From assembly GCF_032884065.1 (NCBI RefSeq), contig NW_027062617.1, positions 310,001 through 374,000 on the forward strand: a DNA stretch of 64,000 nt. Direction: 5' to 3'. The DNA comes from Artemia franciscana. Taxonomy: Eukaryota > Arthropoda > Branchiopoda > Anostraca > Artemiidae. How positions within the stretch are numbered: position 1 is the stretch's first letter; each line of letters starts with the position of its first letter. The translations under genes and the position numbers were made by a program. The notes below the pieces were generated by a model. That model did no database searches, had not been told where the DNA came from, and worked only from the letters and a program-made list of their open reading frames with translations. Positions 5,673-58,835 of this stretch are shown here, one piece after another.

Positions 5673-8257
5673 ATGGTCAGAAATGAATGTAGGGAGCATT
5701 GGTCTCTTGCTGCCCCCTTTTGTTGTGGTATATTTGCAATTTTTTTACTTTTTATGGCACTTGGTATTAATCAAGTGACATATAGCAGTCGCCAATTCTG
5801 TCGGTCTGTCTGTCGGTCCCGGTTTTGCTACTTTAGGCACTTCCAGGTAAGCTAGGACGATGAAATTTGGCAAGCGTATCAGGGACCGGACCAGATTAAA
5901 TTAGAAATAGTCGTTTTCCCGATTTGACCATCTGGAGGGGAGTGGGGGCCCGGTTAATTCGCAAAAAATAGAACAAAATGAAGTATTTTTAACTTATCAG
6001 CGGGTTATTGGATCTTAATGAAATTTGATGTTTGGAATGATATTGTGTCTCAGAGCTCTTATTTTAAATCCCGACCGGATCTGATGACATTGGGGAGAGT
6101 TGGAGGGGGGAAACCTAAAGTCCCGGTTTTGCTACTTTAGGCACTTCCAGGTCAGCTAGGACGATGAAATTTGGCAGGCGTATCAGGGACCCGACCAGAT
6201 TAAATTAGAAATAGTCGTTTTCCCGATTTGACCATCTGGGGGGGGGGAGTGGGGGCCGGTTAATTCGGAAAAAATAGAAAAAATGAAGTATTTTTAACTT
6301 ATGAGCGGGTGATTGCATCTTAATGAAATTTGATGTTTGGAATGTTATTGTGTCTCAGAGCTCTTATTTTAAATCCCGACTGGGTCTGATGACATTGGGG
6401 GGAGTTGGAGGGGGAAACCTAAAATCTTGGAAAACACTTAGAGTGGAGGGATTCGGGATGAAACTTGATGGAAAAAATAAGCGCAAGTCCCAGATACATG
6501 ATTGACATAATCGGAACTGATTTGCTCTCTTTGGGGTAGTTGGGGGGGAGTAATTCTTAAAAATTAGAAAAATGAGGTATTTTCAACTTACGAACGGGTG
6601 ATCGGATCTCAATGAAATTTGATGTTTAGAAGGATATCGTCTCTTAGAGCTCTTATTTTAGATCCCGACCGGATCTGGTGATGGGGGCGGGGAGTTGGGA
6701 GGGGGAAACCTAAAACTTGGAAAACACTTAGAGTGGAGGGATCGGGATGAAACATGGTGGGAAAAATAAACACAAGTCCTAGATAGATGATTGACATAAA
6801 CGGAACGGATTCGCTCTCTTTTGGGTAGTTGGGGGGGGGGGGTATTTCTGAAAAATAAAAAAAAGAGGTATTTTTAACTTACGAACGGGTGATCGGATCT
6901 CAATGAAATTTGATATTTAGAAGGATATCATGGCTCAGAGCTCTTATTTTAAACCCGACCGGATCTGGTGACATTGGGGGGGGGGGAGTTGGGAGGGAGA
7001 AACATAAAAATTGGAAAACACTTAGAGCGGAGGGATCGGGATGAAACTTAGTGGAAAAAAACACGAGTCCTAGATACATGATTGACATAACCAGAACGGA
7101 TCCGCTCTCTTTGGGGTAGTTGGGGGGGGGGGATAATTCTGAAAAATTAGAAAAAATGAGGTATTTTTAACTTACGAACGGTTGATTGGATCTCCATGAA
7201 ATTTGATTTTTAGAAGGATATCGTGTCTCCAAGCTCTTATTTTAAATCCTGACCGGATCTGGTGACATTGGGGGAAGTTTGGGGTGGGGAAACCTAAAAG
7301 GATGGGAAACGCTTAGATTGGAGGGATTGGGATGAAACTTGGTTGGAAAAATAAGCAGAAGTCTTGCATACGTGATTTACATAATTGGAACGGATCCGCT
7401 CGATTGCGGGGGGGGGGGGGGGTAATTCTGAAAAATAAGAAAAGTGACGTATTTTTAACTTACGAAGGAGTGATCGGATCTTCACGAAACTTCATATTTA
7501 GAAGGAGCTCGTAACTCCGATATCTTATTTTAAATCTCAACCGGATCAAGCGTAATTGGGGGGGGGGGGCAGTTGGGGGGACCGGAAATCTTAGAAAATA
7601 CTTAAAGCGGTGATATCAGGATGAAACTGGATGGGAAGAATAGAAACCTGTCTAAGATACGTGACTGACATAACTGGACCGGATCTGCTCTCTTTGGTGG
7701 AATTGGGGGGGGGGGGTTAATATTGAAAATTGAGGTATTTTTAACTTACGAAAGGGTGACCAGATCTTAATGAAATTTGATATTTAGAAGGATCTTGTGC
7801 TTTAAAGCTCTAATTCCAAATTCCGACCAGATCCTGTGACATTCGGGGGAGTTGAAGGGGGGAACCGGAATTCTTGGAAAACATGAAAATTGGAGTATTT
7901 ATATCTTACGAATAGATGATCGGATCGTAATGAAATTTGATTTTTAGAAGGAATTCATGTCTCAGAGCTCTTATTTCAAATCCCGACCAGATCTTTTGAC
8001 ATTGTGGGGATTTGGAGGGGGAAATCTTGGAAAAACACTTGGAGTGTAGGAATCGGGATGAAGCTTGGTGGATAGAATAAACAAATGTCCTTGATACGTG
8101 ATTGAAAGAATCGTACTGGATTCGCTCTCTTTGGGGGAGTTGGGGGGAGGGGTTCAGTGATTTGGCGAGTTCCGTGCTTCTGGACGTGCTAGGGCAATGA
8201 AAATTGGTAGGCGTGTCAGGGAGCTGCACAATTTGACTTGATAAAGTCGTTTCTCTA
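5673..8257 (+). repeat. Tandem array of ~290-bp monomers with a distinct leader
   Basis: The leader (about 5700-5835) contains TATGGCACTTGGTATTAATC and a GTCGGTCTGTCTGTCGG microsatellite. About eight degenerate monomers follow, each with a GATCGGATCTCAATGAAATT-type block. These blocks lie near 6010, 6312, 6603, 6893, 7185, 7473, 7760 and 7919, a spacing of roughly 287-302 bp apart from a truncated last unit. Each unit also has AGCTCTTATTTTAAATCCCG, a CGGATCTGGTGACATTGGGG box and G-runs of up to 14. Small open frames recurring in each unit on the - strand are by-products of the repetition. Sequence matching the monomer resumes at 11727, so the LINE that follows sits inside this array. Confidence 0.85.
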
Positions 8258-8369
8258 TTGTTGCCTATATGTCTTACCTTTCAATCCACCCTCTCTTACT
8301 TCAGCCTGCTTGTATGGATATTGTGTTCATTTGTAAAGTTGTTGTATACATTTGTCTTGTGTAGTATAT

Positions 8370-9755
8370 ATGGGTGATTTCTCCTTTCTTTTGAATTCAT
8401 CTATTCTTAATTCAGTTATATTTGATCAACCAAGTAGTGCTGGTAGACAGGAGGCACACACTTTTGACCCTCTCCTTGAATCTATGGTTAGTTCTAGCTG
8501 CAATTATCACACCACCATTGATTATTGTGATAACATTTTGCCCTCACTCTCTTCAAATAGTTGCTTTAATGTATTTTGTTTGAATGTGCGTGGAATAAGA
8601 GATAAGTGGGACAGTCTTAAATCGTATTTGTGGTCTAATAATTCTTGCCCTTTTGATGTCATAGGCTTGACAGAAACATGGTTATCTGATAGTGATAATT
8701 TTACAGCTTATGATATGGATGGTTATATGGCTATTCATGTCCCTAGAATGGTAACAAAGTGTTCTGGGGGTATTTCTTTGTTTATAAAATCTAATATTGA
8801 ATTTTGTAGAAGATCTGACCTTGAATCCTTGTTTACATCAGTGGTGTCTAATAGTAGGACAGTTTATTCTCTTGTCATTGATCTGAAAAGCCAGTTTGCA
8901 TGTGATACTGTTTGTTTGTTTTATAAGCCCCCTCCTTTTCCAACACATCTGTTCTGTGATTTGCTTGATCAGCTTTCTGGTGTGGGGACTTTCTCTAAAA
9001 AACGAATTTGTGTTTTGGGAGACTTTAATTGCAATATGTTAAATGTCGGATCAAATGATGAATGTGACCATCTTTTTGATGTATTTTCTTCTTCAGGGCT
9101 ACTTCCTTCAATTTTTTTTCCTTCTCGTGTTGACCCTTCAAGAAATTCTGCCACTTTAATAGATAATATTTTCACTTCTCATTCTCCTAATCTGAAGTTC
9201 TCTTCTGGTCTTGTTTTCACTGATCTTTCTGATCACTTTCCTATTTATCTATCACTATCTGTGCCTAAAACTGAGATTACTGTGGATGAGAAAGGTAAAT
9301 CTTCTTTCAGAACTTTTACAGATAAGGAAATTTCTAATTTAATATATGGTCTTCAGAGTAATGATTGGTCTAGTGTTCTTGAAGCTAATGATGCTGATTG
9401 TGCAACTAGATTATTTTTGTGTCGTATGGGGACTCTGTTGGATAAGCATTTTCCTCTTAGAAATAAGCCAAGGAATTTTGCACCCAAATGCCCATGGATG
9501 TCTAGAGGTCTGATCAATGCAACCCATATGAAAGCCTCTTTGTTCAAGGCTGCATGTAAAAGTAAGACACAGGATGATCTTTTGAAGTATAAACATTACA
9601 AAAATGTGCTCACTTCTTCAGTTCGTGTAGCAAAAAAGCTGTATTTTTCGCGTCGAATTAATGAATGCAAGGGGAATTTGCGCAAGGTTTGGACTGTAAT
9701 TAATGAAGCTCTCTCTCGCAAGAAACACAAACATTCCTCTCCATGTTTTTTATAG
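8370..9755 (+). CDS. LINE endonuclease domain (5' part of a frameshifted ORF)
   Basis: Endonuclease/exonuclease/phosphatase-fold domain that would nick target DNA to prime reverse transcription. Visible motifs in order: LNVRGI (near 8580), LTETWL with the catalytic Glu (near 8667), a YKPP block (near 8922), GDFN (near 9018), TLIDNIFT (near 9150) and SDHFP with the catalytic His (near 9228). The rest is the linker that normally runs into the reverse transcriptase. The frame is open from 8352, but the first ATG is at 8370, so I start there. The frame stops at 9753-9755 just after a T6 run, and the RT domain continues in the next frame. The element's own ORF was probably continuous. Confidence 0.85.
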   Translation: MGDFSFLLNSSILNSVIFDQPSSAGRQEAHTFDPLLESMVSSSCNYHTTIDYCDNILPSLSSNSCFNVFCLNVRGIRDKWDSLKSYLWSNNSCPFDVIGLTETWLSDSDNFTAYDMDGYMAIHVPRMVTKCSGGISLFIKSNIEFCRRSDLESLFTSVVSNSRTVYSLVIDLKSQFACDTVCLFYKPPPFPTHLFCDLLDQLSGVGTFSKKRICVLGDFNCNMLNVGSNDECDHLFDVFSSSGLLPSIFFPSRVDPSRNSATLIDNIFTSHSPNLKFSSGLVFTDLSDHFPIYLSLSVPKTEITVDEKGKSSFRTFTDKEISNLIYGLQSNDWSSVLEANDADCATRLFLCRMGTLLDKHFPLRNKPRNFAPKCPWMSRGLINATHMKASLFKAACKSKTQDDLLKYKHYKNVLTSSVRVAKKLYFSRRINECKGNLRKVWTVINEALSRKKHKHSSPCFL

Positions 9756-11451
9756 AAATGCTGATGGTTCTGTTGTAGACAAAAAATCCTCAGCGAGTGC
9801 CTTCAATTCGTATTTCACCACACTTCCTTCAGTTCTAATTCCACCCCCGAGTAGAGTAAGTTGTTTTCCCTTGGCAGAGAAGTCTTTTTTCCTTTCCCCA
9901 TGTAGTACTACTGAGATTTCTAGTATTATTTCCCAACTTCCTAGCAGTCGTTCAGTTGATAGTTTTGGTTTGAGTAATAATGTCCTTAAAAAAATTAGTC
10001 AGTTTGTTTCTCATCCGATTTCACACATAACTAACCTCTCTCTTTCTTCTGGTATTTTCCCTCATTCATTTAAAGTTGCTACTGTTCTACCTTTGCATAA
10101 AAAAGGTGATTCGTCTCTAATTTCAAACTACAGACCTATTTCTCTTCTTCCCGTCATCTCAAAGGTTGTTGAAAAAGTAGTGTATCGTCGACTCTCTTCA
10201 TTTGTATTTAGTACTAATTCGACTGATGGAAATTCTCTCATCACTAACCATCAGTATGGTTTTCGTCCCTCATTCTCTACCTTACATGCACTTACTGATG
10301 CTACAGAGTTTGTGCGTGTTAATCTGGACAAGGGCTTGTGTGTTTTGGGTCTATTTCTTGACTTTTCAAAGGCCTTTGATATGGTTGACCACAATGTTCT
10401 TCTGTCTAAACTATCCTTATTTGGTGTGCATGGAGTCCCACTAGATTGGTTTAGGTCCTACCTCTCAGATAGATCTCAGTATGTTTTGGTTAACCGTACT
10501 TCTTCCACTACTTTGCCTGTATTGAAAGGTGTCCCACAAGGCTCTGTGCTTGGACCACTTTTGTTTCTAATCTACATTAATGATCTTGTTGATGGTATTC
10601 ATCCCCATATTCACCCTGTTCTTTTTGCTGATGACAGTAATTTTTTCATTGCTGCGGTGGACCTGCCATCTGCCACTTCTATAGCTCAAGGTCTTCTTGA
10701 TAAAGTAAAGGATTGGTGCTGGTCAAATGGTATGGCTCTTAACAGCCGAAAGAGTGCCATTGTCAACTTTAGGACCCCTTACCGCATGAGACACGTACGG
10801 GAGCCAATCACCCTGACTTTTGGGAATGATATTATACCACAAGCTACTATGGTGAAACTTCTTGGTGTGTATCTTGACTGTTTTCTTTCTTTTAAACCGC
10901 ATATAACTCACACCCGTTCCTTAATACTCCGCCAGTCTTCAATGTTGCACCGGATTAATTCATTTCTTCCTCCTGATATTATGGTTTCTCTTTATCATGC
11001 TTTTATTCATCCTTACCTTTCTTATTGCTGCTCTGTCTGGGGCAATACTAATAAATCTCTTCTCTGCTCACTTCAAAGAGCCCAAAATAGGGCAGTGAAG
11101 GTTACTTTTCTTCTCCCTCGGCTTTACCCTTCCTCTGATCTTTATAATGATACTGGAATAGCTCCGCTGGATCATATTATAGGTAAAAATACTCTTTATT
11201 TAGCGCATTCTGCTTTTCTAGGTACTCTTCAACCGACCCTGCAGCAGTTTTTCTCAAGGACAGGCTCAGGTAGGTACTTTTCTTCTTTGCGTAATTCTTC
11301 TCGACGATTTATTTTACCAAAACGATCCTCTACAGCAGCTCAGAGGTCTCCTGTATATCAGTCAATTCTATTATGGAACTCCATCCCTTTGGATGTCCCT
11401 CTTTTTCTTTCTGCAAATGCATTATTTCGTCGGGTCTTTCCAGTTAAATAA
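9703..11451 (+). CDS. LINE reverse transcriptase domain (3' part of a frameshifted ORF)
   Basis: RNA-dependent DNA polymerase of the non-LTR class. Visible motifs: SNYRPISLLP (near 10123), NHQYGFRPSFST (near 10245), LDFSKAFD (near 10355) with a catalytic Asp, GVPQGSVLGPLLFLIYIND (near 10529), FADD with the catalytic Asp pair (near 10624), LGVYLD (near 10861), and the thumb/C-terminal block HPYLSYCCSVWG (near 11010). The open frame starts at an ATG at 9703, but this lies inside the endonuclease linker and is probably not a true start. The protein would be fused to the endonuclease upstream. No stop codon interrupts the RT itself, so the copy looks young. A zinc-knuckle C-terminus or RNase H domain is not visible. 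Confidence 0.85.
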   Translation: MKLSLARNTNIPLHVFYRNADGSVVDKKSSASAFNSYFTTLPSVLIPPPSRVSCFPLAEKSFFLSPCSTTEISSIISQLPSSRSVDSFGLSNNVLKKISQFVSHPISHITNLSLSSGIFPHSFKVATVLPLHKKGDSSLISNYRPISLLPVISKVVEKVVYRRLSSFVFSTNSTDGNSLITNHQYGFRPSFSTLHALTDATEFVRVNLDKGLCVLGLFLDFSKAFDMVDHNVLLSKLSLFGVHGVPLDWFRSYLSDRSQYVLVNRTSSTTLPVLKGVPQGSVLGPLLFLIYINDLVDGIHPHIHPVLFADDSNFFIAAVDLPSATSIAQGLLDKVKDWCWSNGMALNSRKSAIVNFRTPYRMRHVREPITLTFGNDIIPQATMVKLLGVYLDCFLSFKPHITHTRSLILRQSSMLHRINSFLPPDIMVSLYHAFIHPYLSYCCSVWGNTNKSLLCSLQRAQNRAVKVTFLLPRLYPSSDLYNDTGIAPLDHIIGKNTLYLAHSAFLGTLQPTLQQFFSRTGSGRYFSSLRNSSRRFILPKRSSTAAQRSPVYQSILLWNSIPLDVPLFLSANALFRRVFPVK

Positions 11452-11726: not shown

Positions 11727-12094
11727 AGAAGGACTTTATGACTCAAAGCTCTTATTTTAAATCTTGACCGGCATTAAGCCTCTTATTTTCCTTTTTAAAT
11801 CAATCTATTGATTCATAGAATTTTGTTAGAGCTCATACCATATGATCTCTTGGCTCTTAGCTCTTCTCGCCTCGTCACAAGTGCCATATGAGCTCTTAGC
11901 TCTTGTTTATATTGTCAATGCAAGTAGCCCATTTTTTCGTTTCTTTCGAGCTTGTGTAATTCACCCCCCCCCCCCACCTCACACACAGATAAATTTTTGT
12001 GTATGTGTCAAGTACTACAATGTCACTTTTCACACCCTACTTAAAGCTTTGTTCCTCATCTTGGGGCTCTAAGTTATTTCTTATAAATTATTAT
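11727..12094 (+). repeat. Continuation and distal end of the monomer-array element
   Basis: Immediately after the LINE tail, AGAAGGACTTTATGACTCAA and AGCTCTTATTTTAAATCTTG match the 290-bp monomers. The sequence then runs into a different end segment containing two TCTTAGCTCTT-type blocks (near 11850-11910). This is consistent with one larger element split by the LINE. No gene is seen up to the palindrome at 12095. Confidence 0.6.
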
Positions 12095-12309
12095 TAGTCC
12101 AGGACTTTTAGCTCAAAAAAGGGTCGAACCCGGACAAAATTGCAATATAAACGAAAATGGTACCAAAATGATCAGAAAAAAATTCTGTACAACATACTAA
12201 AAGTCCCCATAAATCCGAGTGGGGCGAGTACCCGAAAAACAGGGGAAAAGGGGGAAATGCGGGAGAAAATGGGAAAAATGCCGAACATGCCCAGAAAATA
12301 GTTTAAAGT

Positions 12310-12650
12310 GAGTTTTCTGGGGTTTTCACATACGCTGATTACGACATTGACATCTAAAATTCAGTATAGAAAAAGAGTACTACGGAAAACGGGGGAACAG
12401 GGGAAAGAGGGGAGAAAAGAGAAGAATACAGGGTAGGGGTAGAAAGCGGTTTGAAAGATATTTTCTGGGGTATTCCTATCTGGTGATTACGAAATTGAGA
12501 AATAAAATGATATAAAAAAAATCGATTAACATAAAACGGGGAAATGGGGAGGGGAGGGGAAAAGGGAAATATACAGGGTAGGGGTAGAAAGCATGTGGAA
12601 ATGTGTTTTCTGGGGTTTTTCTATCTGCTGATCACGAAACTGACCCCCTA
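12310..12650. repeat. Three ~145-bp subrepeats within the left palindrome arm
   Basis: A block of the form TTTTCTGGGGTTTTCACATA ... CTGATTACGAAATTGA recurs near 12317, 12460 and 12606, each preceded by runs of GGGGAAAAGGGG type. The same triplet occurs inverted in the right arm (about 14690-15060). They lie between the coding fragment and the outer end, where subterminal transposase-binding repeats would be expected. That role is inference. Confidence 0.6.
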
Positions 12651-12956
12651 AAATGAAGGAAAGAAAACGAGAACCATGAAAACCGAACAAAACTGGACGA
12701 AACAACGGAAAAGGGGAAGGGAGGCCTGACTCCTGAGCCAGCTGCTAATGGCTAATAAGTAGGCCTATGGAAAAAATAACTCGCTTAAGTATCAAACTTG
12801 TATTTTCTTGAATCACAGACATTTCTTACAACCATTTGAATTACTAAACATAAAGAAAACAACCGCTTGGCAGTTATATATAAAATGGCCATTATATGTA
12901 AAATTTGCACTTTCGAAGGCAGTATAGTTGACTTGAAAAACACAGCATTGATATCA

Positions 12957-13685
12957 CTAGTCGAGCTCCTCGTCTTCGACAATCTCGTTGTCCCTGTTCA
13001 AACAGTTGATACCCTGACATTCTCCGCACGCGAACGTACACGCTAATCCATTTTTCTTGCAGCTGCATCGCGAGTTCTCGCAGCCTGTCTTACAGTTGCA
13101 TCTCACGACACTCAAAAGAGTCTGAGGTGCGGGCAACAAATGGGTCATCACAGGTGAGTATTTATGGTCTCTGAGGACCCAACCCCAGTCAGCCGGGTCG
13201 AGGTCAGCTGGTTCCCCTTTCCAACGGGATACCTGGAGGCGCACTCGCTGGGAGTAGAATGAAGCTGCAGCTTCGGTTGGCGGAAGCCTTTCAGGGTTAA
13301 CAAACGCCGTAGTATTAGACGAAGAAACTTTTTCCAAGAAAATTCGATGTCGCAGCTTAGTGAGATCTTCGTTTGGTCGTGCTTTATACAAGCTGAGGAG
13401 AAGATATTCACCCGCTTTCACAATTTCATCTTTGGACGATGATTCATCCAGAAACACTTTGCATTTTTTTCTGAACACTTCGCTCTTCTTCAAAAGAGGT
13501 AGCACAGCTTGCTTTTCAAGTCCAAAAACTCGTGAGGTCGTGTCACATCCCAAGAGTGCGTGCCCTACCAGAAGCAGCCTGGATACTTCTCCCATTTTTT
13601 TTTGCACTTCGTTGAGGCACCAGAACCGTGTTATCGCTTCTTTTGCGTTCGTTGACGAACGCAAAACTCTGAAACAATAGGCCAA
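12957..13685 (-). CDS. Transposon-like protein fragment with GCDTTS motif and CXC-type Cys cluster
   Basis: Open for 242 codons. The first 30 codons reach into the palindrome centre and use no ATG. The first in-frame ATG is at 13595 (MGEVSRLLLV), giving 212 residues. Two regions stand out: an N-terminal LLLVGHALLGCDTTSRVFG block, and a C-terminal cysteine cluster beginning CNCKTGCENSRCSCKKNG and continuing C-x3-C-x2-C-x5-C. The cluster resembles the CXC (tesmin/TSO1/LIN54) DNA-binding fold by spacing. The middle contains a PPTEAAASFYSQRVRLQVS segment and a WGW motif. From memory, similar GCDT plus CXC proteins are widespread and mostly uncharacterised in arthropod and cnidarian genomes and look mobile-element-linked; I cannot name a family. 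The N-terminus is probably truncated at the centre. It ends at TAG at the outer side of the fragment. Confidence 0.6.
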   Translation of the reverse strand: MAYCFRVLRSSTNAKEAITRFWCLNEVQKKMGEVSRLLLVGHALLGCDTTSRVFGLEKQAVLPLLKKSEVFRKKCKVFLDESSSKDEIVKAGEYLLLSLYKARPNEDLTKLRHRIFLEKVSSSNTTAFVNPERLPPTEAAASFYSQRVRLQVSRWKGEPADLDPADWGWVLRDHKYSPVMTHLLPAPQTLLSVVRCNCKTGCENSRCSCKKNGLACTFACGECQGINCLNRDNEIVEDEELD

Positions 13686-13691
13686 GACCTA

Positions 13692-14406
13692 TTGTTTCAG
13701 AGTTTTCTGCTTTCAACGAACTGTTTCAGCGAAGCAAACAGAGTTTCAACGAAGTGCAAAAAAAAAATGGGAGAAGTATCCAGGCTGCTTCTGGTAGGGC
13801 ACGCACTCTTGGGATGTGACACGACCTCACGAGTTTTCGGACTTGGAAAGCAAGCTGTGCTACCTCTTTTGAAGAAGAGCGAAGTGTTCAGAAAAAAAAT
13901 GCAAAGTGTTTCTGGATGAATCATCGTCCAAAGATGAAATTGTGAAAGCGGGTGAATATCTTCTCCTCAGCTTGTATAAAGCACGACCAAACGAAGATCT
14001 CACTAAGCTGCGATATCGAATTTTCTTGGAAAAAGTTTCTTCGTCTAATACTACGGCGTTTGTTAAGCCTGAAAGGCTTCCGCCAACCGAAGCTGCAGCT
14101 TCATTCTACTCCCAGCGAGTGCGCCTCCAGGTATCCCGTTGGAAAGGGGAACCAGCTGACCTCGACCCGGCTGACTGGGGTTGGGTCCTCAGAGACCATA
14201 AATACTCACCTGTGATGACCCATTTGTTGCCCGCACCTCAGACTCTTTTGAGTGTCGTGAGATGCAACTGTAAGACAGGCTGCGAGAACTCGCGATGCAG
14301 CTGCAAGAAAAATGGATTAGCGTGTACGTTCGCGTGCGGAGAATGTCAGGGTATCAACTGTTTGAACAGGGACAACGAGATTGTCAAAGACGAGGAGCTC
14401 GACTAG
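13692..14406 (+). pseudogene. Frameshifted mirror copy of the GCDTTS/CXC protein
   Basis: This right-arm copy encodes the same protein as the left arm, read outward from the centre. It is split into two frames: 13692-13919 (up to SEVFRKK) and 13906-14406 (from VFLDESSSKDE to the Cys cluster and stop). The break coincides with an A8 run near 13893-13900, where the left arm has the complement of A7, so one inserted base explains it. A second difference is an A10 run (left arm nine) before MGEVS. Residue differences are few (for example HRIF versus YRIF, VNPE versus VKPE, IVED versus IVKD). The Cys cluster is intact. Confidence 0.75.
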
Positions 14407-15494
14407 TGATATCAATGCTGTGTTTTTCAAGTCAACTATACTGCCTTCGAAAGTGCAAATTTTATATATAATAGCCATTTTATATATAACTGCCAAGCGG
14501 TTGTTTTCTTTATGTTTAGTAATTCAAATGGTTGTAAGAAATGTCTGTGATTCAAGAAAGTACAAGTTTGATACTTAAGCGAGTTATTTTGTCCATAGGC
14601 CTACTATTAGCCATTAGCAGCTGGCTCAGGAGTCAGGCCTCCCTTCCCCTTTTCCGTTGTTTCCTCCAGTTTTGTTCGGTTTTCATGGTTCTCGTTTTCT
14701 TTCCTTCATTTTAGGGGTCAGTTTCGTGATCAGCAGATAGAAAAACCCCAGAAAACACATTTCCACATGCTTTCTACCCCTACCCTGTATATTTCCCTTT
14801 TCCCCTCCCCCCCCATTTCCCCATTTTATGTTAATCGATTTGTTTATATCATTTTATTTCTCAATTTCGTAATCACCAGATAGGAATACCCCAGAAAATA
14901 TTTTTCAAACCGCTTTCTACCCCTACCCTGTATTCTTCTCTTTTCTCCCCTCTTTCCCCTGTTCCCCCGTTTTCCGTAGTACTCTTTTTCTATACTGAAT
15001 TTTAGATGTCAATTTCGTAATCAGCGTATGTGAAAACCCCAGAAAACTCACTTTAAACTATTTTCTGGGCATGTTCGGCATTTTTCCCATTTTCCCCCTT
15101 TTCCCCTGTTTTTCGGGTACTCGCCCCACTCGGATTTATGGGGACTTTTAGTATGTTGTACAGAATTTTTTTCTGATCATTTTGGTACCATTTTTGTTTA
15201 TATTGCAATTTTGTCCGGGTCAAACCCTAAAAGTCCTGGACTATATCCCCAAAAGGGAAACTGCTTGCATGGCCTCATAGTATCGTAAGGGTGGACGTTT
15301 CACAAGTTTTCCTAACCAGAACCGTAACTGAAAACGGCGTTGGAGGGTAACCCTGAGGAGTGGCATCCCTCAAGGAAACTATAGCCTTGTTAACGAAACA
15401 ATACCGCACAGGATTCTGATAATGGATAAATCTTCTGGGTTTTGTTTGTTTTGGTTGGTGTTTTTTGGAGTTACAAATTTCTTCCTAGCTAAGT

Positions 15495-19195: not shown

Positions 19196-20912
19196 TGATT
19201 AAATAAATAAAAAACAAGTTTTTTTAACGGAAAGTAAGGAGGGACATTAAAACTTAAAACGAACAGAAATTACTTCGTATGTGAAAGGGGATGCTTCCTC
19301 ATCAACGCCTCGCTCTTTACGCTAAAGTTTGAATCTTTCTCTTAACTCAACTTTTTAAAACAGTAAAAAACTTTAGCGTAAAGAGCGGGGCGTTGATGAG
19401 GAAGCAGCCCCTTTCACATACGAAGTAATTTCTGTTCGTTTTAAGTTTTAATGTCCCTCCTTACTTTCCGTTAAAAAAAACTCGTTTTTTTTATTTGATT
19501 TCTGAACGTTTTTGGATCAATGCATGTTTGATTTTGGCTCTCCGCAGATGAATAATTAAAACGAAATTTGCATATTTATGTTTTTTTGGCTAAATACCTT
19601 TCTCATAGTTTCGGTTGACTGATTTTGAGAAAAAAGGAGCGGGGAAGGAGGCCTAGTTGCACTCCGATTTTTTGGTTACTTAGAAAGGCAACAAGAACTT
19701 TAATTTTTTACAAATGTTTTTATTAGTAAAAGACATACATAGCTTATAAATTACCTTACGTAACCAACTTGTGTATTCTCATGTTTTTATTAGTATATGA
19801 GGGGGTTCACCCCCTCGTCAGTACCTCGCTCTTTACACTAAAGCTTAAATTTTGTCCCAATTTCTTAAGAATGACCCCTGAATCACAAAAGCCGTAGAAT
19901 AAATAGTTGAAATTACTAAAAATACTTTAGCGTAAAGATCGAGGTATTGGGAGGAGGTGAGCCCATCATGTGGGTAATAATTTCTGTTTGTTTCTAAGTT
20001 TTAACTCTGCTCCTTACTTTCAGTTGAAAAAACTTTTTCATATTTATTTTTTCATTGTTTTTTTTTTTAAATAATGCTAGAAAATCCTGCGCTCCCTTCA
20101 AGGAAATTTTCTTCCCCGTGATAAATTCCTCCAAGAAAAGTTCTCCCCGCATTTCTACTCTTCTCAGCCCCCCCCCAACCAAAAAATTCCCCTGAAAACG
20201 TTTGTACACTTCCAAATAACCATTACTATATGTAAGCACTGGTCAAAGTTTGTAAATTGTAGCCCCTCCCACGGGGACTGAGGGGGAAGAAGTCGTCCTC
20301 AAGGACATAGTTATAAGGTTTTTTAACTACGCTGAATAAAATGGCTATCTCAGAATTTGGATCCGGTGACTTGGGAAAATCATTAGCGTGGGAGGGGGCC
20401 TAGGTGCCCTCCAATTTTTTTGGTCACTTAAAAAGGGAACTAGAACTTTTCATTTCCGTTAGAATGAGCCCTTTCGCAAGATTCTAGGACCACTGGGTCG
20501 ATACGATCACCCCTGAAAAAAAAAACAAAAAACAAACAAATAAACACGCATCCGTGATCTGCCTTCTGGCAAAAAATACAAAATTCCACATTTTTGTGGA
20601 TATGAGCTTGAAGCTTCTACAATAGGGTTCTCTGATACGCTGAATCTGATGGTGTGATTTTCGTTAAGATTCCATGACTTTTAAGGGTTGTTTCCCCCTA
20701 TTTTCTAAAATAAGGCAAATTTTCTCAGGCTCGCAACTTTTGCTGGGTAAGACTAAACTTGATGAAACTTATATATTTAAAATCAGCATTAAAATTCGAT
20801 TCTTTTGATGTTGCTATTGGTATCAAAATTTCTCTTTTTAGAGTTTTGGTTACTATTGAGCCAGGTCGCTCCTTACTACAGTTCGTTACCACGAACTGTT
20901 TGAAAAATGGTG
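19196..20912 (+). mobile_element. Fold-back family, copy B (essentially full length)
   Basis: The copy starts with ATTAAATAAATAAAAAACAA and the fold-back module. Left arm about 19215-19330 and right arm about 19370-19490 are inverse copies, both containing TTTACGCTAAAGTTT or its complement. The second module lies near 19795-20040. The 3' end is GTCGCTCCTTACTACAGTTC and the hairpin CAGTTCGT-TACC-ACGAACTG, followed by TTTGA. With copies E and F it defines both ends of the element, about 1.7 kb. No reading frame longer than 90 codons is plausible, so it is non-autonomous. Subfamily 1 (GAGGAAGCAGCCCCTTTCA in the module). Confidence 0.8.
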
Positions 20913-22584: not shown

Positions 22585-22659
22585 GCAAGTTATTAGCTCA
22601 CTTGGTAGAGCGTGAGACTTTTAACCCTCGGGTCAAGGGTTCAAGTCCTTTACGGGCGG
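22585..22659 (+). tRNA. tRNA-Lys(TTT)-like relic, probably a pseudogene
   Basis: A clear D arm (TAGCTCACTTGGTAGAGC), an anticodon loop CTTTTAA with anticodon TTT, a T arm AAGGG-TTCAAGT-CCTTT that pairs, and a downstream T-run of eight bases as a polymerase III stop. However, the anticodon stem (TGAGA against CCCTC) is mostly mispaired and the 5' acceptor strand (GCAAGTT) does not match the 3' strand (ACGGGCG). It therefore looks like a decayed gene copy or the head of a tRNA-derived repeat, not an active tRNA. Confidence 0.6.
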
Positions 22660-26732: not shown

Positions 26733-27246
26733 GGGGTCCCTAAACTTTTAAAATCATGCCACCCACCAAAAGGACTTATGTTTTAAACCCAAATTAGTGG
26801 GAACCAAGATCTTATTTCCTATTGTGTCTTTTTCGGATCTCCAGCCGATCCAATCTTTCTAGGAAGGAGGTAGGGGGGTCCAACTTCTTTTTTCAGAACA
26901 TCTATCAGGCTGCTGACTTGCAGCCAACCTTTGTTTAAAGTGAAACCAAGTGTCAAAGATGTACTTTTTGGGGATCCAAACCCAAGATAACCTCTGTTTT
27001 AGGGAGGAGGGGGGCTGGTTCCTCTATTCTTTGCAATCATAGAATCCATCAAAAGGGACTGTTGGACCTCAACCAAAGCTGACGAATAGAAGGTGGAGCT
27101 GTCATATTTGTGGCTTTTGAGGGTCCATACCCAGTAATTCCTATCTAGGGGTGGGAGATCCCTGAATTCTTATAACCGTTAAATATTCTAAGGTGGGCTG
27201 TTGGGTCCCCATCAATCTTATTTGAAGTAAAAGCTAACGACCCAAC
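26733..27246 (+). repeat. Degenerate ~140-bp tandem repeat in a troponin C intron
   Basis: About four units start near 26733, 26866, 27001 and 27147. Each has a GGAGGGGTCC-type box, a CATC-AAAAGGACT-type box, and a GGATCCAAACCCA or GGGTCCATACCCA box. A further, more decayed stretch of similar wording lies around 27995-28240. No coding potential. Confidence 0.5.
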
Positions 27247-31043: not shown

Positions 31044-32716
31044 CAAACAGTTCGTGGTAACGAACTGTAGTAAGGAGCGACCCGGCTCAATAGTAAACGA
31101 AACTCTAAAAAACGGAATTTTGATGCTAAGAGATACATCAAAAGAATCGGATTTTCATGCTGATTTTAAATATATAAGTTTCATCAAATTTAGTCTTTGT
31201 CATCAAAAGTTACGAGTTTCTGAGAAAATTTGCTTTATTTTGGAAAATAGTGGGGAAACATCCCCTAAAAATCATAGAATCATAACGAAAATCTCACCAT
31301 CGCGATCAGCATATCAGAGAACCCTAAAGCAAAAATTTTGAGCTCCTATCTACAAAAATGTGGAATTTTGTATTTTTTGCCAGAAGGCAGATCAAGGATG
31401 CGTGTTTATTTGTTTTTTTTTCCAGGGGTGATCGTATCGACCCAGTTGTCCTAGAATGTTGCAAGAGGGCTCATTCTAACGGAAATGAAAAGTTCTAGTG
31501 CCCTTTTTAAGTAACCAAAAAAATTGGAGGGCATCTAGGCCCCCTCCCACACTAATTATTTTACCAATGTCAACGGATCAAAATTCTGAGATAGCCATTT
31601 TATTCAGCGTAGTCGAAAAACCTTATAACTATGTCTTTGGGGACGACTTACTCCCCCACAGTCCCTGTGGGAGGGGCAACAAGTTACAAACTTTGACCAG
31701 TGCTTACATATAGTAATGGTTATTGGGAAGTGTACTGGCGTTTTCAGGAGGATTTGTTTTGGTTGGGGGGAGGGGTTGAGAAGAGGGGGATATGCTGGGG
31801 GAACTTTCCATCGATAATTGTCATGGGGGAAGAAAATTTCCATGAAGGGAGCGCAGGATTTACTAGCATTATTTAAAAAAACAATGAAAAAATAAATATG
31901 AAAAAGTTTTTTCAGCTGGAAGTAAGGAACAGCATTAAAACTTAAAACAAACAGAAATTACCCATATGAGGGGCTCACCTCCTCCTAATATCTCGCTCTT
32001 TACGCTAAAATATTTTTAGTAACTTCAACTATTTATTCTACGGCTTTTGTGATTCAGGGGTCATTCTTAATGAATTGGGACAAAATTTAAGCTTTAATGT
32101 AAAGAGCGAGGTACTGACGAGGGGGCGAACTCCCTCATATATGCAATAAAAATATGAGAATACAAAAGTTCTTTACGTAAGCTAATTTATAAGTTACTTA
32201 AATCTTTTACTAATAAAAAGATTCGTAAAAAATTAAAAGTTCTAGTTGCCTTTTTAATTAACCAAAAAATCGGAGTGCAACTAGGCTTCTTCCCCCGCTC
32301 TTTTTTTCTCAAAATTATGAGAAAATCATTTAGCCAAAAAAAAAAATGCAAATTTTGTTTTAATTATTCCTCCGCGGAGAGCCAAAATCAAAACATGCAT
32401 TGATTCAAAAACGTTCGATTCAAAAAAACAAGTTTTTTTAACTGAAAGTAAGGAGCGACATTAAAACTTAAAACGAAAAGAAATTACTTCGTATATGAAA
32501 GAGGCTGCTTCCTCATCAATGTCCCGCTCTTTACGCTAAAGTTTTTTACTGTTTTAAAAAGAAGAATTGAGAGAAAGAGTCAAACTTTAGCGTAAAGAGC
32601 GGGGCGTTCATGAGGAAGCAGCCTCTTTCATATACGAAGTAATTTCTGTTCGTTTTAAGTTTTAATGTCGCTCCTTACTTTCAGTTAAAAAAACTTGTTT
32701 TTTTTTATTTAATCTG
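31044..32716 (-). mobile_element. Fold-back family, copy E (full length, with 34-bp flanking duplication)
   Basis: Reverse orientation, 1673 bp. It begins CAAACAGTTCGTGGTAACGA, the terminal hairpin, and ends with the fold-back module and TTTTTTATTTAATCTG. The 34 bp before it (31010-31043) and after it (32717-32750) are the same sequence with one T/C difference, starting AAAAGAATTCTCCTAATAGT and ending CTTTATATAT. This gives exact element boundaries and shows insertion within the troponin C intron. Subfamily 1. No coding capacity. Confidence 0.88.
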
Positions 32717-41689: not shown

Positions 41690-42660
41690 TTATGTTGAAG
41701 CTTATCTTCAAAAATACTTTATTTTCTTCAAAAATTCACTTGCTCAGAAAAGATATTCTTAGGGGCTTTGGTCAAAATTTAAGAATATCTATGTTGTTGT
41801 TTTTTTACTCGACTCACAGTTTAGATTGCTGTTCAACAGCATTTCAAGATTTTACGAACAAATTTCACTCAAATGTCTAATTTCTCTATAATTCTTACTT
41901 TGACGCTTATCTTCAAAACTGCTCTTTTTTTCAGAATTTGCTTACTCACTAGGGATATTCTTAGGGACTTTTGTCAAGAACTGGATAATGTGTTCGGTTT
42001 TTCTGAACTCAACCCAAAGGTTAAATTGTTATTCGAGAGCGATTTTACAAAAAATTTTCAGCTAGTTCTCTTTTTTTTTACTATAATTCTAGCTTTATAT
42101 TGTCATAAGTCAGCCTCATTCAGAGTAAAAAAAAAATCAAAATAAGTTATTTCCTATCCAGAACAAATTGGGTTTTTCTGAACTCAACCCAAAAGTTACA
42201 TTGTTATTCGAGAGCGATTTTACAAAAAAATTTCAGTTAATTCTCTTTTTTTACTATAATTCTAGCTTTATATTGTCATAAGTCAGCCTCATTCAGAGTA
42301 AAAAAAAAAAAAAATCAAAATAAGTTATTTCCTATCCAGAACAAATTGAATATTCTTGTGTTAAATCTGGCAGAAGTATAGAAGCCTGTTGACCATGTGC
42401 CTAAATTCAGTTCCCAGATTGAGATTCCAAATTTTGGCTTTCGCCCAGGCCCGATTTCTCGGCTTGCCTAAATATAAACATCTTTAAATTCTTAGGTTGA
42501 AATTTAACGTATAGTAGGATTCACCAGGAGCTTAAAAATTCATGATTTTTTTTCTTTCTTCCTTATTGCGATAAAAGACTCGTCGTGTCCAAAGCTTATA
42601 GCTACATCCTGAAACCATGGTTTGGAGTGGAGGCTTTTGGATCGAACTTTAGATCAAACT
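41690..42660 (+). repeat. Tandem and dispersed duplicates in last intron
   Basis: A block of about 177 bp beginning TTTTTCTGAACTCAACCCAA and including ATTGTTATTCGAGAGCGATT occurs at about 41995 and 42172. A weaker relative lies at about 41810. The remainder (42330-42560) matches the block at 40550-40770. Confidence 0.65.
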
Positions 42661-42664
42661 TTAG

Positions 42665-43500
42665 AATCAACACAGGTGAAGCTATTCGTCCTATGGAAAA
42701 TTCACAGAATAAACCCTGTCACACGTAATTAATCAATTCATACCTTATAATTAACAGATTTAAAGCTATTCGTCTTTGGGATATTTCACTGAATAAACAA
42801 CGTCAAATTTAATTTTATCAGTTCAAACTTTATAATCAACAGAATTAAAGCTATTCGGCCTTGGGAAAATTTACTGAATGAACCGCATAAAATTTAATTC
42901 ATCGGTTCAAACATTTACAATAGCCAGACTTAAAGCTATTCGTCCTTGGGATAATTCACTTAATAAATTGCTTCAAATTTAATTCATCATTTCAAACCTT
43001 ACAATCAATTGGTTTGAAGCTATCCGTCCTTGGAAAAATTCACTGAATAAACCACGTCAAGTTTAATTCATACGTTCAAACTTTATAAGTCAACCGAGTT
43101 AAAGCTATTCTTCCTTGTGCAAATTTACTGAATAAACCATGTTAACTTAAAGTCATCAGTTCAAACTTCATATTAAACATAGTTAAAGCTATTAATCCCT
43201 GGGAAAATCCACTGAATAAACAGTGTCAAATTTAATTTATCTGCTTAAACTTTGTAATCAACAGAGTTAAAACTATTCGCCCTTGAAAAAATTCACTGAA
43301 TAAGCCACATCAAATTTGATTCATCAATCAAAACCTTATAATCAACTGAATTAAAGCTATTCGTCCCTGGACAATTTTACTGAATAAACCACGTCAAATT
43401 TAATGCATCACTTCCAATTTTATAATGAATAGAGTTAAAGCTATTCGTTCTTATCAATATTCACTGAATAAACTGTGTCAAATTTAATTCATCAGTTTTT
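42665..43500 (+). repeat. Minisatellite of ~85-bp units, about ten copies
   Basis: The unit contains AAAGCTATTCGTCCTTGGGA, AATTCACTGAATAAACCACG, TCAAATTTAATTCATCAG and TTCAAACTTTATAATCAAC. The AAAGCTATTC word recurs near 42672, 42763, 42847, 42931, 43015, 43101, 43186, 43270, 43355 and 43438, a period of 84-91 bp. Units differ by many substitutions, so the array is old. It ends about 120 bp before the last exon. Confidence 0.85.
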
Positions 43501-47506: not shown

Positions 47507-49246
47507 AATCAAACAGTTCGTGGTAACGAACTGTATTAAGGAGCGACCCGGCTCAATAGTAAACGAAACTCTAAAAAACGGAATTATAATGCTAAAATAT
47601 ACAGCAACAGAATCAGATTTTCATGCTGATTTTAAATATATAAGTTTCATCAAATTTAGTCTTTGTCATCAAAAGTTACTAGCCTGAAAAAATTTGCCTT
47701 ATTTTAGAAAATAGGGGAAAACACCCCCTAAAAGTCACAGAATCTTAACGAAAATCACACCATCGCATTCGGCGTATTAGAGAACCCTATAGCAAAGTTT
47801 TCAAGCTCCTATCTACAAAAATGTGGAATGTCGTATTTTTTCCCAGAAGACAAATCACGGGTGCGTGTTTATTTGTTTGTTTTTTTTTTGTTTTTTTTTT
47901 CCCAGGGGTCATTGTATCGATCAAGTGGTCCTAGAATGTCGCAAGAGGGCTCATTCTAACGGAAATGAAAAGTTCTAGTGCCCTTTTTAAGTGACTAAAA
48001 AAATTGGAGGGCACCTAGGCCCCCTCCAACGCTCATTTTTTCTATAAAGTCAACAGATCAAAATTTTGAGATAGCCATTTTGCTCCGCATAGTCAAAAAC
48101 CATAATAACTATGTCTTTGGGAATGACTTACTCCTCCACAGTCCCTGGGGGAGGGGCTGCAAGTTACAAACTTCGACCAGTGTTTACATATAATAATGGT
48201 TATTGGGAAGTGTACAGTCGTTTTCAGGGGATTTTTTTTATTTTGGGGGTGGGGTTGAGGGGAGGGGGCTATGTAGGAGGATCTTTCCTTGGAGAAATAT
48301 TTCAAGGGGGAACAGAAATTCAATGAGAAGGGCGCAGGATTTTCTAAAATTACTATAAAAAAACAATGAAAAAATAAACATGGAAAAGTTTTTTCAATTG
48401 AAAGTAAAGAATAGCATTAAAACTTAAAACGAACAGAGATTATTACGCATATGAGGGGTTCTAAAAGTACTTTAGCATAAACAGTGTGGTATTTAGGAGG
48501 AGATAAATACCTCGCTCTTTATGCTATAGTATTTTTAGTAATTTCAACTATTTATTCTACGGCCTTTCCTATTCAGGGGTCATTCTTAAAGAATTGGGAC
48601 AAAACTTAAGACTTAGTGTAAAGAACGAGGTATTAACGAGGGTACAAACCCCCTCATATACATAATAAAAATTAAAGAATATAAAAGTTTGTTACGTAAG
48701 TTAATTCTTAAGTTACGTATATTATTTACTAATAAAAAAATTCGTTAAAAATTAAAATTTATAGTTGCCTTTTTATGCAACCGAAAAATTGCATGGCAAC
48801 TAGGCCTCCTTCCCCATCCCTTATTTCTCAAAATCGTCTGATCAAAACTAAGAGAAAGCCATTTAGCCAAAAAAGGAATTAATATGCAAATTTCATTTTA
48901 ATAATTTATGTGTGGAAAGCCAAAATCAAACATGCATTAATTCAAAAACGTTCAGAAATTACATGAAAAAAACTAGTTTTTTTAACTGAAAGTAAAGAGC
49001 GACATTAAAACTTAAAACGAACAGAAATTACTTCGTATATGAAATGGGTTGTCCCCTCCGCAATCGCTCGCTCTTTACGCTCTTTGCCACAATTATGCTT
49101 TTTAAAACAATTAAAAGCTTTAGCGTAAAGAGCGAGGGATTGCGGAGGGGACAACCCATTTCATATACGGAGTAATTTCTGTTCGTTTTAAGTTTTAATG
49201 TCGCTCCTTACTTTCAGTTAAAAAAAAACTAGTTTTTTTATGTAAT
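47507..49246 (-). mobile_element. Fold-back family, copy F (subfamily 2)
   Basis: Reverse orientation. It begins ATCAAACAGTTCGTGGTAAC with the terminal hairpin and GGAGCGACCCGGCTCAATAG, and ends with the fold-back module (left arm about 48975-49085, right arm about 49115-49230) and ATGTAAT. The module carries CGCTCTTTACGC with AATGGGTTGTCCCCTCCGCA in place of the GAGGAAGCAGCCCC of copies A, B, D and E, and a local hairpin near 48465-48540 (TATTTAGGAGGAGATAAATA). These features are shared with copy G. No direct flank duplication was seen. It lies directly beside the Penelope-like fragment. Confidence 0.8.
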
Positions 49247-56800: not shown

Positions 56801-58835
56801 TACTTCCATTTAAATGCTTATGTGTGATGAACAAATAAACGTTCAAATGGCGATAAAGTCCATTTATTATACAGTGAAAACAGACACAAAAGTCTGGACA
56901 GCGAGTATATTCAGTAGAAATTAGCAGAAATATTTCTGCTAAAGACGATCGCTGTGTATGTGGCCAAAATATTCAAACTGTTGTGTCTGTTCTCACTCTC
57001 TAATGACTTGACTTACCTCCATTTAAATGCTTATGTGTGATGAACAAATAAACGTTCAAATGGCGATAAAGTCCATTTATTATACAGTGAAAAAAGACAC
57101 AAAAGTCTGGACAGCGAGTATATTCAGTAGAAATTAGCAGAAATATTTCTGCTAAAGACGATCGCTGTGTATCTGGCCAAAATGTTCAAACTGTTGTGTC
57201 TGTCATCACTCTCCAATGAATTGACTTACCTCCATTTAAATACTTATGTGTGACGAACAAATAAACGTTCAAATGGCGATAAAGTCCATTTATTAGACAG
57301 TGAAAACAGACACAAAAGTCTGGACAGCGAGTATATTCAGTAGAAATTAGCAGAAATATTTCTGCTAAAGACGATCGCTGTGTATGTGGCCAAAATATTC
57401 AAACTGTTGTGTCTGTTCTCACTCTCTAATGAATTGATTTACCTACATTTAAATGCTTATGTGTGACGAACAAATAAACGTTCAAATGGCGATAAAGTCC
57501 ATTTATTATACAGTGAAAACAGACACAAAAGTCTGGACATTTTGACCACTTGGACAGCGACTATATTCAGTACAAATTAGCAGAAATATTTCTGCTAAAG
57601 ACGATCGCTGTGTATCTGGCCAAAATATTCAAACTGTTGTGTCTGTTCTCACTCTCTAATGAATTGACTTACCTCCATTTAAATGCTTATGTGTGACGAA
57701 CAAATAAACGTTCAAATGGCGATAAAGTCCATTTATTATACAGTGAAAACAGACACAAAAGTCTGGACAGCGAGTATATTCAGTAGAAATTAGCAGAAAT
57801 ATTTCTGCTAAAGACGATCGCTGTGTATGTGGCCAAAATGTTCAAACTGTTGTGTCTGTCATCACTCTCTAATAAATTGACTTACCTCCATTTAAATACT
57901 TATGTGTGACGAACAAATAAACGTTCAAATGGCGATAAAGTCCATTTATTATACAGTGAAAACAGACACAAAAGTCTGGACATTTTGACCACTTGGACAG
58001 CGACTATATTCAGTAGAAATTAGCAGAAATGTTTCTGCTAAAGACGATCGCTGTGTATCTGGCCAAAATATTCAAACTGTTGTGTCTGTCATCACTCTCT
58101 AATGAATTGACTTACCTCCATTTAAATACTTATGTGTGACGAACAAATAAACGTTCAAAAGGCGATAAAGTCCATTTATTAGACAGTGAAAACAGACACA
58201 AAAGTCTGGACATTTTGACCACTTGGACAGCGACTATATTCAGTAGAAATTAGTAGAAATATTTCTGCTAAAAACGATCGCTGTGTATGTGGCCAAAATA
58301 TTCAAACTGTTGTGTCTGTTATCACTCTCTAATGAATTGACTTACCTCCATTTAAATGCTTATGTGTGACGAACAAATAAACTTTCAAATGGCGATAAAG
58401 TCCATTTATTAGACAGTGAAAACAGACACAAAAGTCTGGACATTTTGACCACTTGGACAGCGACTATATTCAGTAGAAATTAGCAGAAATATTTCTGCTA
58501 CGATCGCTGTGTATGTGGCCAAAATATTGAAACTGTTATGTCTGTTCTCACTCTCTAATGATCTGATTTACCACAATTTAAATGCTAATATGTGACGAAC
58601 AAATAAACGTTCAAATGGCGATAAAGTCCATTTAATAGACAGTGAAAACAGACACAAAAGTCTGGACATTTTGACCACTTGGCCAGCGACTATATTCAGC
58701 AGAAATTAGCAGAAGTATTTCTGCTAAAGACGATCACTGTATTTGAGGTCAAAATATTCAAACTGTTGTGTCTGTTTTCACTCTCTAATGAATTGACTTA
58801 CCTCCATTTGAATGCTCATTCGTGGACCTTTACTT
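50885..58835. repeat. Satellite array: 36 monomers of 213 or 230 bp
   Basis: Nearly 8 kb of head-to-tail monomers marked by ATAAAGTCCATTTATTA, ACAGACACAAAAGTCTGGAC, the perfect 18-bp palindrome AGCAGAAATATTTCTGCT, GACGATCGCTGTGTATGTGG, TTCAAACTGTTGTGTCTGT and CTCTCTAATGAATTGA. Using the AAGTCC word as anchor, spacing is either 213 or 230 bp. The 17-bp difference is TTTTGACCACTTGGACA, lying between two TGGACA words. Monomers are very similar in the middle and diverge at both ends (first unit near 50921, last near 58624). Segments repeat at fixed offsets of 1755 and 4166 bp, showing higher-order duplication. No coding role is seen. Confidence 0.95.

What the first reader, a model, noticed from the sequence alone, without database searches (positions are those of the whole stretch)
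12095..15243. Large near-perfect palindrome with coding arms
Two ~1.57-kb arms are reverse complements around a 6-bp centre and carry the same protein fragment pointing in opposite directions. The arms are far more alike than expected for old repeats, which suggests recent formation or ongoing gene conversion. Transcription through it would give a long hairpin RNA able to feed RNA interference against related elements.
Basis: seen in the sequence. Interest (0 to 1): 0.75.

Follow-up and report, generated by a model that had tools for sequence, protein, structure and literature searches.

The report
Palindromic copy of a DNA transposon
The palindrome is a young jumping-gene copy whose rear half was once duplicated backwards and then spread to about two dozen places in this genome; the accident is of a known kind, here in a transposon that looks like a different type from the known cases.

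Summary
The palindrome is real and at the stated coordinates. It is a complete mobile element (12095-15243) flanked by a 3-bp target duplication (TAT). It belongs to a young DNA-transposon family in this 1.27-Gb genome: 157 5' tips at up to 1 mismatch; ordinary 3' halves differ by 0.9% on average; 21 of 21 two-ended copies examined have exact 3-bp target duplications.

Ordinary members have ~550-bp terminal inverted repeats (TIRs) and a long ORF with an XPG/FEN-like nuclease region, most resembling AcademX. In the palindromic subfamily the 3' half (TIR, 3' UTR, last ~0.7 kb of ORF) appears a second time, inverted, behind a short remnant of the 5' end. One junction is shared by 24 loci: one founding inverted duplication, then spread by transposition.

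A second local rearrangement made the window copy's 6-bp centre, unique in the assembly. Arm-to-arm gene conversion is not supported for the window copy (arms differ by 1.17%, more than the 0.89% mean between such arms of different copies), though the interior has flipped in some copies. An assembly fold-back is excluded for the palindrome, not for its innermost centre. An RNAi role is untested. Close precedents: Galileo TIRs that recruited ORF sequence, and maize Mu killer.

The parts
12092..12094 (.). left copy of the 3-bp target site duplication (TAT)
   Evidence: 3-bp flanks identical in 21 of 21 two-ended copies, against 24 of 420 pairings across copies
12095..13681 (.). left arm: 5'-type tip, then 3'-half sequence with coding on the minus strand, continuing into the original spacer
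12095..12127 (+). 5'-type tip (TAGTCCAGGACTTTTAGCTC...)
   Evidence: the first 13 diagnostic sites (positions 16-33) are of 5' type in 7 of 7 palindromic copies painted; from the next one (about position 359) on they are of 3' type, isolated sites aside
12226..12643 (.). three ~145-bp subterminal direct repeats, left arm
12957..13685 (-). ORF fragment, 242 aa: end of the XPG/FEN-like region (HALLGCDTTSRVFGL) and a cysteine-rich tail
   Evidence: the cysteine-tail label is by eye
13659..13681 (.). second rearrangement, private to this copy: 23 nt in place of 70 nt of the shared spacer; 12- and 17-nt pieces match the opposite strand of a palindromic relative (L009)
13682..13687 (.). 6-bp centre (CCAAGA), flanked by a perfect 19-bp stem
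   Evidence: a pattern over 13665-13704 occurs once in the genome at up to 2 mismatches
13688..15243 (.). right arm: the inverted duplicate side of the junction, here with the 3'-type tip
13723..13757 (+). founding junction (end of the filler and start of the duplicated arm), shared by 24 loci
   Evidence: 25 matches at up to 2 mismatches, reversed control 0
13906..14406 (+). ORF fragment in the right arm, 166 aa, frame broken further in
14681..15096 (.). three ~145-bp subterminal direct repeats, right arm
15222..15243 (-). 3'-type tip (TAGTCCAGGACTTTTAGGGT read on the minus strand)
15244..15246 (.). right copy of the target site duplication (TAT)

Best explanation
The palindrome is a whole non-autonomous DNA transposon, an inverted-duplication derivative of a young, probably Academ-like (AcademX-type) family. 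SHOWN: it ends in the family's two different tips with a 3-bp target duplication; its arms are the parent's 3' half (TIR, 3' UTR, last ~0.7 kb of the ORF); only 33 to 358 bp come from the parent's 5' end; one founding junction with a short filler is shared by 24 loci; the window copy carries a second, private rearrangement at the centre. INFERRED: during repair of a gap left by transposition, a new strand that had copied the 3' half switched template and copied the same half back, and recombination or switching within the ~550-bp TIRs supplied the 5' tip. Because both tips survived, transposase from other copies could move the palindrome, and it spread. Exchange between the inverted arms, once or more, inverted the interior relative to the tips in some copies, the window's among them. 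The high arm identity reflects youth.
For: 3-bp flanks identical in 21 of 21 two-ended copies (window + 20 fetched), 24 of 420 when paired across copies. Of 20 fetched copies 13 are ordinary members with ~550-bp TIRs and mostly differing internal deletions, and 7 are palindrome-derived (L009, L010, L011, L013, L016, L018, L019), two of them with one arm largely deleted (L010, L011). Five palindromes have a 179-nt spacer that differs by 1-4 substitutions between copies. Junction pattern: 25 matches at 24 loci, reversed control 0; 17 of the 20 such loci on contigs C1-C19 have a listed exact 5' tip within 3 kb. Tip painting, 7 of 7. A long relative, L031, and 15 loci with the middle coding region, one of them partial. 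XPG/FEN relation: BLASTP E = 3e-5 with an own-genome ORF that scores 53.4 bits for Pfam XPG_I; 0 of 2000 shuffles reach the alignment score.
Against: No sequencing read was seen. No transposase core was recognised: Pfam gives only DUF6589 below its cut-off (E 0.0059 and 0.015). None of the 15 places of the XPG_I genome search coincides with a copy listed in my other calls, and PDB, PHROGs and NCBIfam searches found nothing relevant. Three of the 20 junction loci show no exact 5' tip nearby in the listing. Shuffled junction contexts match the parent by 10 nt or more in 150 of 1000 trials, so a templated filler is weak evidence. Once tips and inner ends are left out, the arm tree has no starred fork: the sequences of the arms alone neither confirm nor refute a single palindromic lineage; the shared junction does that work.
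Confidence: 0.85

Rival explanations
1. Assembly or library fold-back: one arm is a chimeric inverted copy of the other.
For: Fold-back artefacts exist in long-read data (title and start of abstract of PMC12870357, listing). The window's 6-bp centre occurs once in the assembly.
Against: The founding junction occurs at 24 loci and every two-ended copy fetched has its own 3-bp target duplication; the palindrome ends exactly at the family's tips, which differ from each other; the window's arms differ by 22 mismatches and 14 gaps.
Confidence: 0.03
2. The arms are kept alike by ongoing gene conversion or recombination between them.
For: The interior is inverted relative to the tips in the window, L011, L018 and L019 but not in L009, L010, L013 and L016, so arms have exchanged at least once. 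One arm of L009 is nearest to its own partner (0.41%), and the arms of L016 group weakly (83/76).
Against: Within-copy divergence over positions 40-1500 is 1.17 (window), 0.41, 0.82, 0.56, 1.30 and 0.89%, much like the 0.89% mean between opposite-type arms of different copies (43 pairs); for 11 of 12 arms the nearest arm lies in another copy.
Confidence: 0.12
3. A mobile silencer: read-through transcription gives a ~1.5-kb hairpin RNA against the parent's ORF end and TIRs, so that the subfamily acts, by chance or selection, as a spreading Mu killer-like repressor.
For: Mu killer has the same layout: partial inverted duplication of the transposase gene and two TIR copies, and it silences its parent (PMC3440606, abstract and passages). 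The stem covers ~0.7 kb of ORF plus UTR and TIR at about 99% to its targets. The palindrome is at 24 loci.
Against: No expression or small-RNA data. In the Mu killer paper itself, silencing plants made short antisense transcripts, and the plants that failed to silence made the read-through sense transcripts, so even there the simple hairpin model is in doubt. Ordinary internal-deletion copies spread too. Two of the palindrome-derived copies fetched have lost most of one arm (L010, L011).
Confidence: 0.1
4. A Foldback/Galileo-type family whose TIRs were always this long, not a late derivative.
For: Long TIRs with internal direct repeats.
Against: 13 of 20 fetched members have ~550-bp TIRs and a one-copy interior; the long arms appear with one shared junction. 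The fetched set is drawn from the best matches of one probe.
Confidence: 0.04

Closest known systems
Galileo (P superfamily, Drosophila), copies with extended TIRs
   Same: Final piece of the transposase ORF recruited into both TIRs (more than 500 bp in one copy); three copies with extended TIRs flanked by identical target duplications; direct tandem repeats in TIRs; [quoted passage not shown]
   Different: 3-bp instead of 7-bp target duplications; apparently another protein family; here one palindromic junction is shared by 24 loci and the recruited stretch leaves almost no single-copy interior.
Mu killer (maize, MuDR derivative)
   Same: Partial inverted duplication of the transposase gene with two TIR copies (PMC3440606, abstract and passages).
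   Different: There a dominant locus beside a flanking gene, with a shown silencing effect; here many loci, moving as a transposon, effect untested.
AcademX lineage of Academ DNA transposons
   Same: 3-bp target duplications (AcademX: 3 or 4 bp, and a nuclease in contrast to the helicase of AcademH; PMC10045372, passage); XPG/FEN-like region in the ORF (that the AcademX nuclease is XPG is recalled).
   Different: Catalytic core not identified here; no reference Academ sequence compared. No palindromic Academ derivative among the 15 of 92 papers listed.
Tetris and other Foldback-like elements
   Same: Elements dominated by long TIRs with tandem repeats (title and start of abstract of PMC4079207, listing; details recalled).
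   Different: Here the palindromic state is a secondary derivative, not the family's basic layout.

Membership tests
AcademX (Academ superfamily) | 3- or 4-bp target site duplications | tested here: met
   3 bp in 21 of 21 two-ended copies; definition from PMC10045372, passage
AcademX (Academ superfamily) | XPG-type nuclease domain in the ORF (recalled) | tested here: inconclusive
   BLASTP E = 3e-5 to an own-genome XPG_I-positive ORF, 0 of 2000 shuffles as good; but no Pfam XPG match in the ORF scans and no known copy among the 15 places of the XPG_I genome search. VFDG, DADYLIV, GNDTDLLIL and GCDTTS look like FEN/XPG sites by eye (recalled)
AcademX (Academ superfamily) | Academ-type DDE transposase core | tested here: inconclusive
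   only DUF6589 below cut-off; I do not know whether DUF6589 is related to Academ
AcademX (Academ superfamily) | terminal sequence matching reference Academ ends | not testable with these tools
   no Repbase copy; Kojima 2020 (PMC7165386) not held
Foldback-like elements (structural class) | very long TIRs making up most of the element | tested here: met
   the aligned arms span all but 6 bp, with a poorly paired inner stretch
Foldback-like elements (structural class) | internal direct repeats in the TIRs | tested here: met
   three ~145-bp repeats per arm
Galileo / P superfamily | 7-bp target duplication (Galileo in D. willistoni) | tested here: not met
   3 bp; 0 of 21 copies have 4 or 5 identical bp; the 7 bp from PMC4168063
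Mu killer-like silencer | inverted duplication of the transposase gene plus two TIRs | tested here: met
   that the ORF is the transposase is inferred
Mu killer-like silencer | transcription and heritable silencing of the parent family | not testable with these tools
   no RNA data

The most novel reading that the evidence does not exclude
The palindromic subfamily is a self-spreading silencer: an inverted-duplication derivative that keeps both transposon tips, rides on its parent's transposase, and wherever it lands beside a promoter makes a ~1.5-kb hairpin RNA matching the parent's ORF end and TIRs, so that the parasite's own repair errors produce a mobile, multi-copy version of Mu killer that caps the family.
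Probability: 0.1. Interest if true: 0.75.

Novelty: new variant of a known kind. Interest (0 to 1): 0.4.

Why it matters
It shows a series of states in one genome: ordinary parent, founding inverted duplication, amplified palindromes, interior flips, and a private shortening of the loop in the window copy. Long palindromes are usually held to be unstable (recalled); here one was spread to 24 loci. It extends the ORF-recruiting TIR growth described for Galileo to what looks like a second transposon type, and offers natural loci for testing whether palindromic derivatives silence their parents.

Tried and rejected
Relatives of the ORF fragment in viral and prokaryotic contigs: none confirmed. 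PDB by sequence: nothing relevant. AlphaFold2 of the window fragment alone: mean pLDDT 41, unusable, no fold search made. Rfam on the window: one marginal tRNA. Another copy of the tip or arms in the window: none. A weak tblastn hit at 27104-27160 (E 0.58) was looked at and dropped. Diverged relatives of the ORF: the 80 scored of 2193 candidates are nearly all the same family, so no deep alignment could be built. The count of 3' tips was never obtained (server busy).

A conclusion withdrawn on checking: seemed to show that the duplicated arms of different copies form their own branch (88/87) and that the window, L018 and L019 form one flipped lineage (98/95). Those runs included the differing tips and the non-homologous inner ends. 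Restricted to arm positions 40-1500 the tree has no starred fork and both branches vanish. I therefore no longer claim one flip or an arm lineage; the confidence of the best explanation was lowered from a planned 0.87 to 0.85 and that of the conversion rival raised from 0.08 to 0.12.

Dropped rows: L011_3 (truncated arm) was left out of both trees and its 26.96% is not counted; the pal-pal and pal-can means include it and are not used. L010 was left out of the tip painting, since its second end was found later. One search uses 7 duplicated-side arms and 7 original-side arms; L010's truncated arm and L011_3 are not among them.
Full report
OBSERVATION. The two arms 12095-13681 and 13688-15243 are reverse complements with 1523 matches, 22 mismatches and 14 gaps. 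The centre is 6 bp with a perfect 19-bp stem; beyond that stem some 40-47 positions per arm align only with many gaps. Both arms carry the same ORF fragment and three ~145-bp direct repeats near their outer ends. No further copy of the tip or the arms lies in the window.

FAMILY. The window lies in a 1.27-Gb assembly of 6468 contigs. A 643-bp probe from the left arm gave 43 matches (40 candidates scored of 199), nearly all at 99%. I fetched 20 loci of about 10 kb, L009-L028, from among its best matches, so they favour copies with an intact 3' half. The two-ended copies begin and end with TAGTCC(A/C)GGACTTTTA; one end goes on with GCTC (5' end), the other with GGGT or a one-base variant (3' end). 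With the window and all 20 loci (L010's second end found; L015's end lies 10 bases further in than first taken), 21 of 21 have identical 3-bp flanks, against 24 of 420 pairings of flanks from different copies; none has 4 or 5 identical bp. The 5' tip occurs 157 times in the genome at up to 1 mismatch, reversed control 0.

ORDINARY MEMBERS. 13 of the 20 fetched loci have ~550-bp TIRs (the 5' ones 94-97% identical to the window arm in BLAST) and a one-copy interior with mostly differing internal deletions; L026 and L028 appear to share one. Their 3' halves differ by 0.9% on average. A longer relative, L031, has a 1216-codon open frame preceded by a 168-codon one; its last 118 codons lie in another frame and its extreme 3' end is missing. 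Fifteen loci carry the middle coding region, one in part. Pfam sees only DUF6589 below its cut-off (E 0.0059 and 0.015). By eye the ORF has FEN/XPG-like motifs (VFDG, DADYLIV, GNDTDLLIL, GCDTTS; labels recalled) and a cysteine-rich end. As a test, an own-genome ORF chosen because it scores 53.4 bits for Pfam XPG_I (one of 15 places; fetched) aligns with the transposon ORF at E = 3e-5, and 0 of 2000 shuffles reach the alignment score. Against this, none of those 15 places coincides with a copy of the family listed in my other calls. With 3-bp target duplications the nearest named lineage is AcademX, for which 3 or 4 bp and a nuclease are stated in PMC10045372 (passage). I call the family probably Academ-like, not a proven member.

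THE PALINDROMIC SUBFAMILY. Seven of the 20 fetched loci and the window are palindrome-derived; L010 and L011 have lost most of one arm. Five copies have a 179-nt spacer with 1-4 substitutions between any two of them, all ending in the same filler. Read from the original arm, the sequence follows the parent's 3' half and about 0.15 kb more, breaks off at ...CTGCTTTC, passes a short filler, and runs back along the same 3' half. The bases after the break, TCAACGAAGTG, are those at which the duplicated arm starts 33 bases later, as if copying began, failed and began again; but shuffled contexts match the parent by 10 nt or more in 150 of 1000 trials, so I give this little weight. The junction pattern has 25 matches at up to 2 mismatches, reversed control 0, at 24 loci, two matches being 574 bp apart on C18; L011, whose junction is cut by a deletion, is not among them. 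Of the 20 loci on C1-C19, 17 have an exact 5' tip listed at 708-2658 bp and 3 have none nearby (the listing stopped at C19 and showed exact matches only). One junction at so many loci, with separate target duplications in those fetched, means one founding event and then transposition.

THE 5' TIP. Of the diagnostic sites between ordinary 5' and 3' ends, the first 13 (positions 16-33) are of 5' type in the 5' arm of 7 of 7 palindromes painted; from the next one (about position 359) on they are of 3' type, isolated sites aside. So between 33 and 358 bp of the 5' end survive, and the change lies inside the TIR. Recombination or template switching within the TIRs explains this.

ARM HISTORY. My first comparison included the differing tips and non-homologous inner ends and seemed to give each arm its own branch. 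Restricted to positions 40-1500 that branch support is gone: the tree is star-like, with no starred fork. Within-copy divergence is 1.17% (window), 0.41, 0.82, 0.56, 1.30 and 0.89% (L009, L013, L016, L018, L019); between copies, duplicated-side arms differ by 0.72% on average (21 pairs), original-side arms by 1.05% (21 pairs), opposite types by 0.89% (43 pairs), ordinary 3' halves by 0.91% (78 pairs). For 11 of 12 arms the nearest arm is in another copy; the exception is L009_5. So arms within a copy are about as far apart as arms of different copies: a young burst, with no sign of conversion in the window copy. Some exchange did happen: the window, L011, L018 and L019 have the interior inverted relative to the tips, and L009, L010, L013 and L016 do not. 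Whether this was one flip or several cannot be told.

SECOND EVENT. In the window copy 23 nt (13659-13681) stand in place of 70 nt of the shared spacer (132 against 179 nt in all). They match the opposite strand of a palindromic relative in two overlapping pieces, 12 and 17 nt, as expected of two short template switches in a hairpin. A pattern over this centre occurs once in the genome. This made the '6-bp centre', and it is the part that could still be an assembly error.

MECHANISM. Shown: a whole mobile element, one founding inverted duplication, spread, a private second rearrangement. Inferred: origin in interrupted gap repair with template switching, as proposed for Galileo (PMC4168063, passages), whose copies recruited more than 500 bp of ORF into their TIRs; and mobilisation by transposase from other copies. 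Not tested: any RNA role. Mu killer of maize has the same layout and silences its parent, though there short antisense transcripts went with silencing and read-through sense transcripts with its failure (PMC3440606, abstract and passages).

NOVELTY. The kind is known. The listings (12, 7, 7 and 15 papers shown) had no title on a palindromic Academ derivative; they cover only the open library, one search showed 15 of 92 papers, and the AcademH paper is not held. I rate it a new variant of a known kind.

Noticed in passing
8352-11451 (+), tail to about 11735: Non-LTR retrotransposon with endonuclease and reverse transcriptase ORFs (Pfam Exo_endo_phos 2.8e-10, RVT_1 4.7e-33) in two overlapping frames, followed by a TTGA-repeat tail; CR1/L2-like by eye.
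   Followed up: partly
51187-58816: Satellite array with two unit lengths, 213 and 230 bp, in irregular order; units of one kind are mostly 95-100% alike, the two kinds about 75-78% without gaps.
   Followed up: no
5816-8021: Tandem array of ~290-304-bp units; a similar stretch is seen near 11740 by eye, so the retrotransposon may have landed in the array.
   Followed up: no
42654-43497: Ten copies of an 84-bp unit.
   Followed up: no
20516-20903 with 47509-47896, 19206-19490 with 32422-32706, 48641-48972 with 60154-60485 and others: Many long inverted repeat pairs at 80-97% across the window, apparently copies of another dispersed repeat family.
   Followed up: no
22593-22652 (+): Marginal tRNA match (29.8 bits, gathering score 29), possibly a tRNA-derived repeat.
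   Followed up: no
G000:C18:35600286-35600894: Two founding junctions 574 bp apart in opposite orientation: perhaps a palindrome within a palindrome.
   Followed up: no
L018:1913-4459: Palindromic copy in which part of one arm (arm positions 527-1564) follows as a direct repeat.
   Followed up: no
G000:C12:268677-270272, C182:45410-47005 and C18:31333534-31334502: Copies of the parent ORF region lying in open frames of 1043 codons.
   Followed up: no
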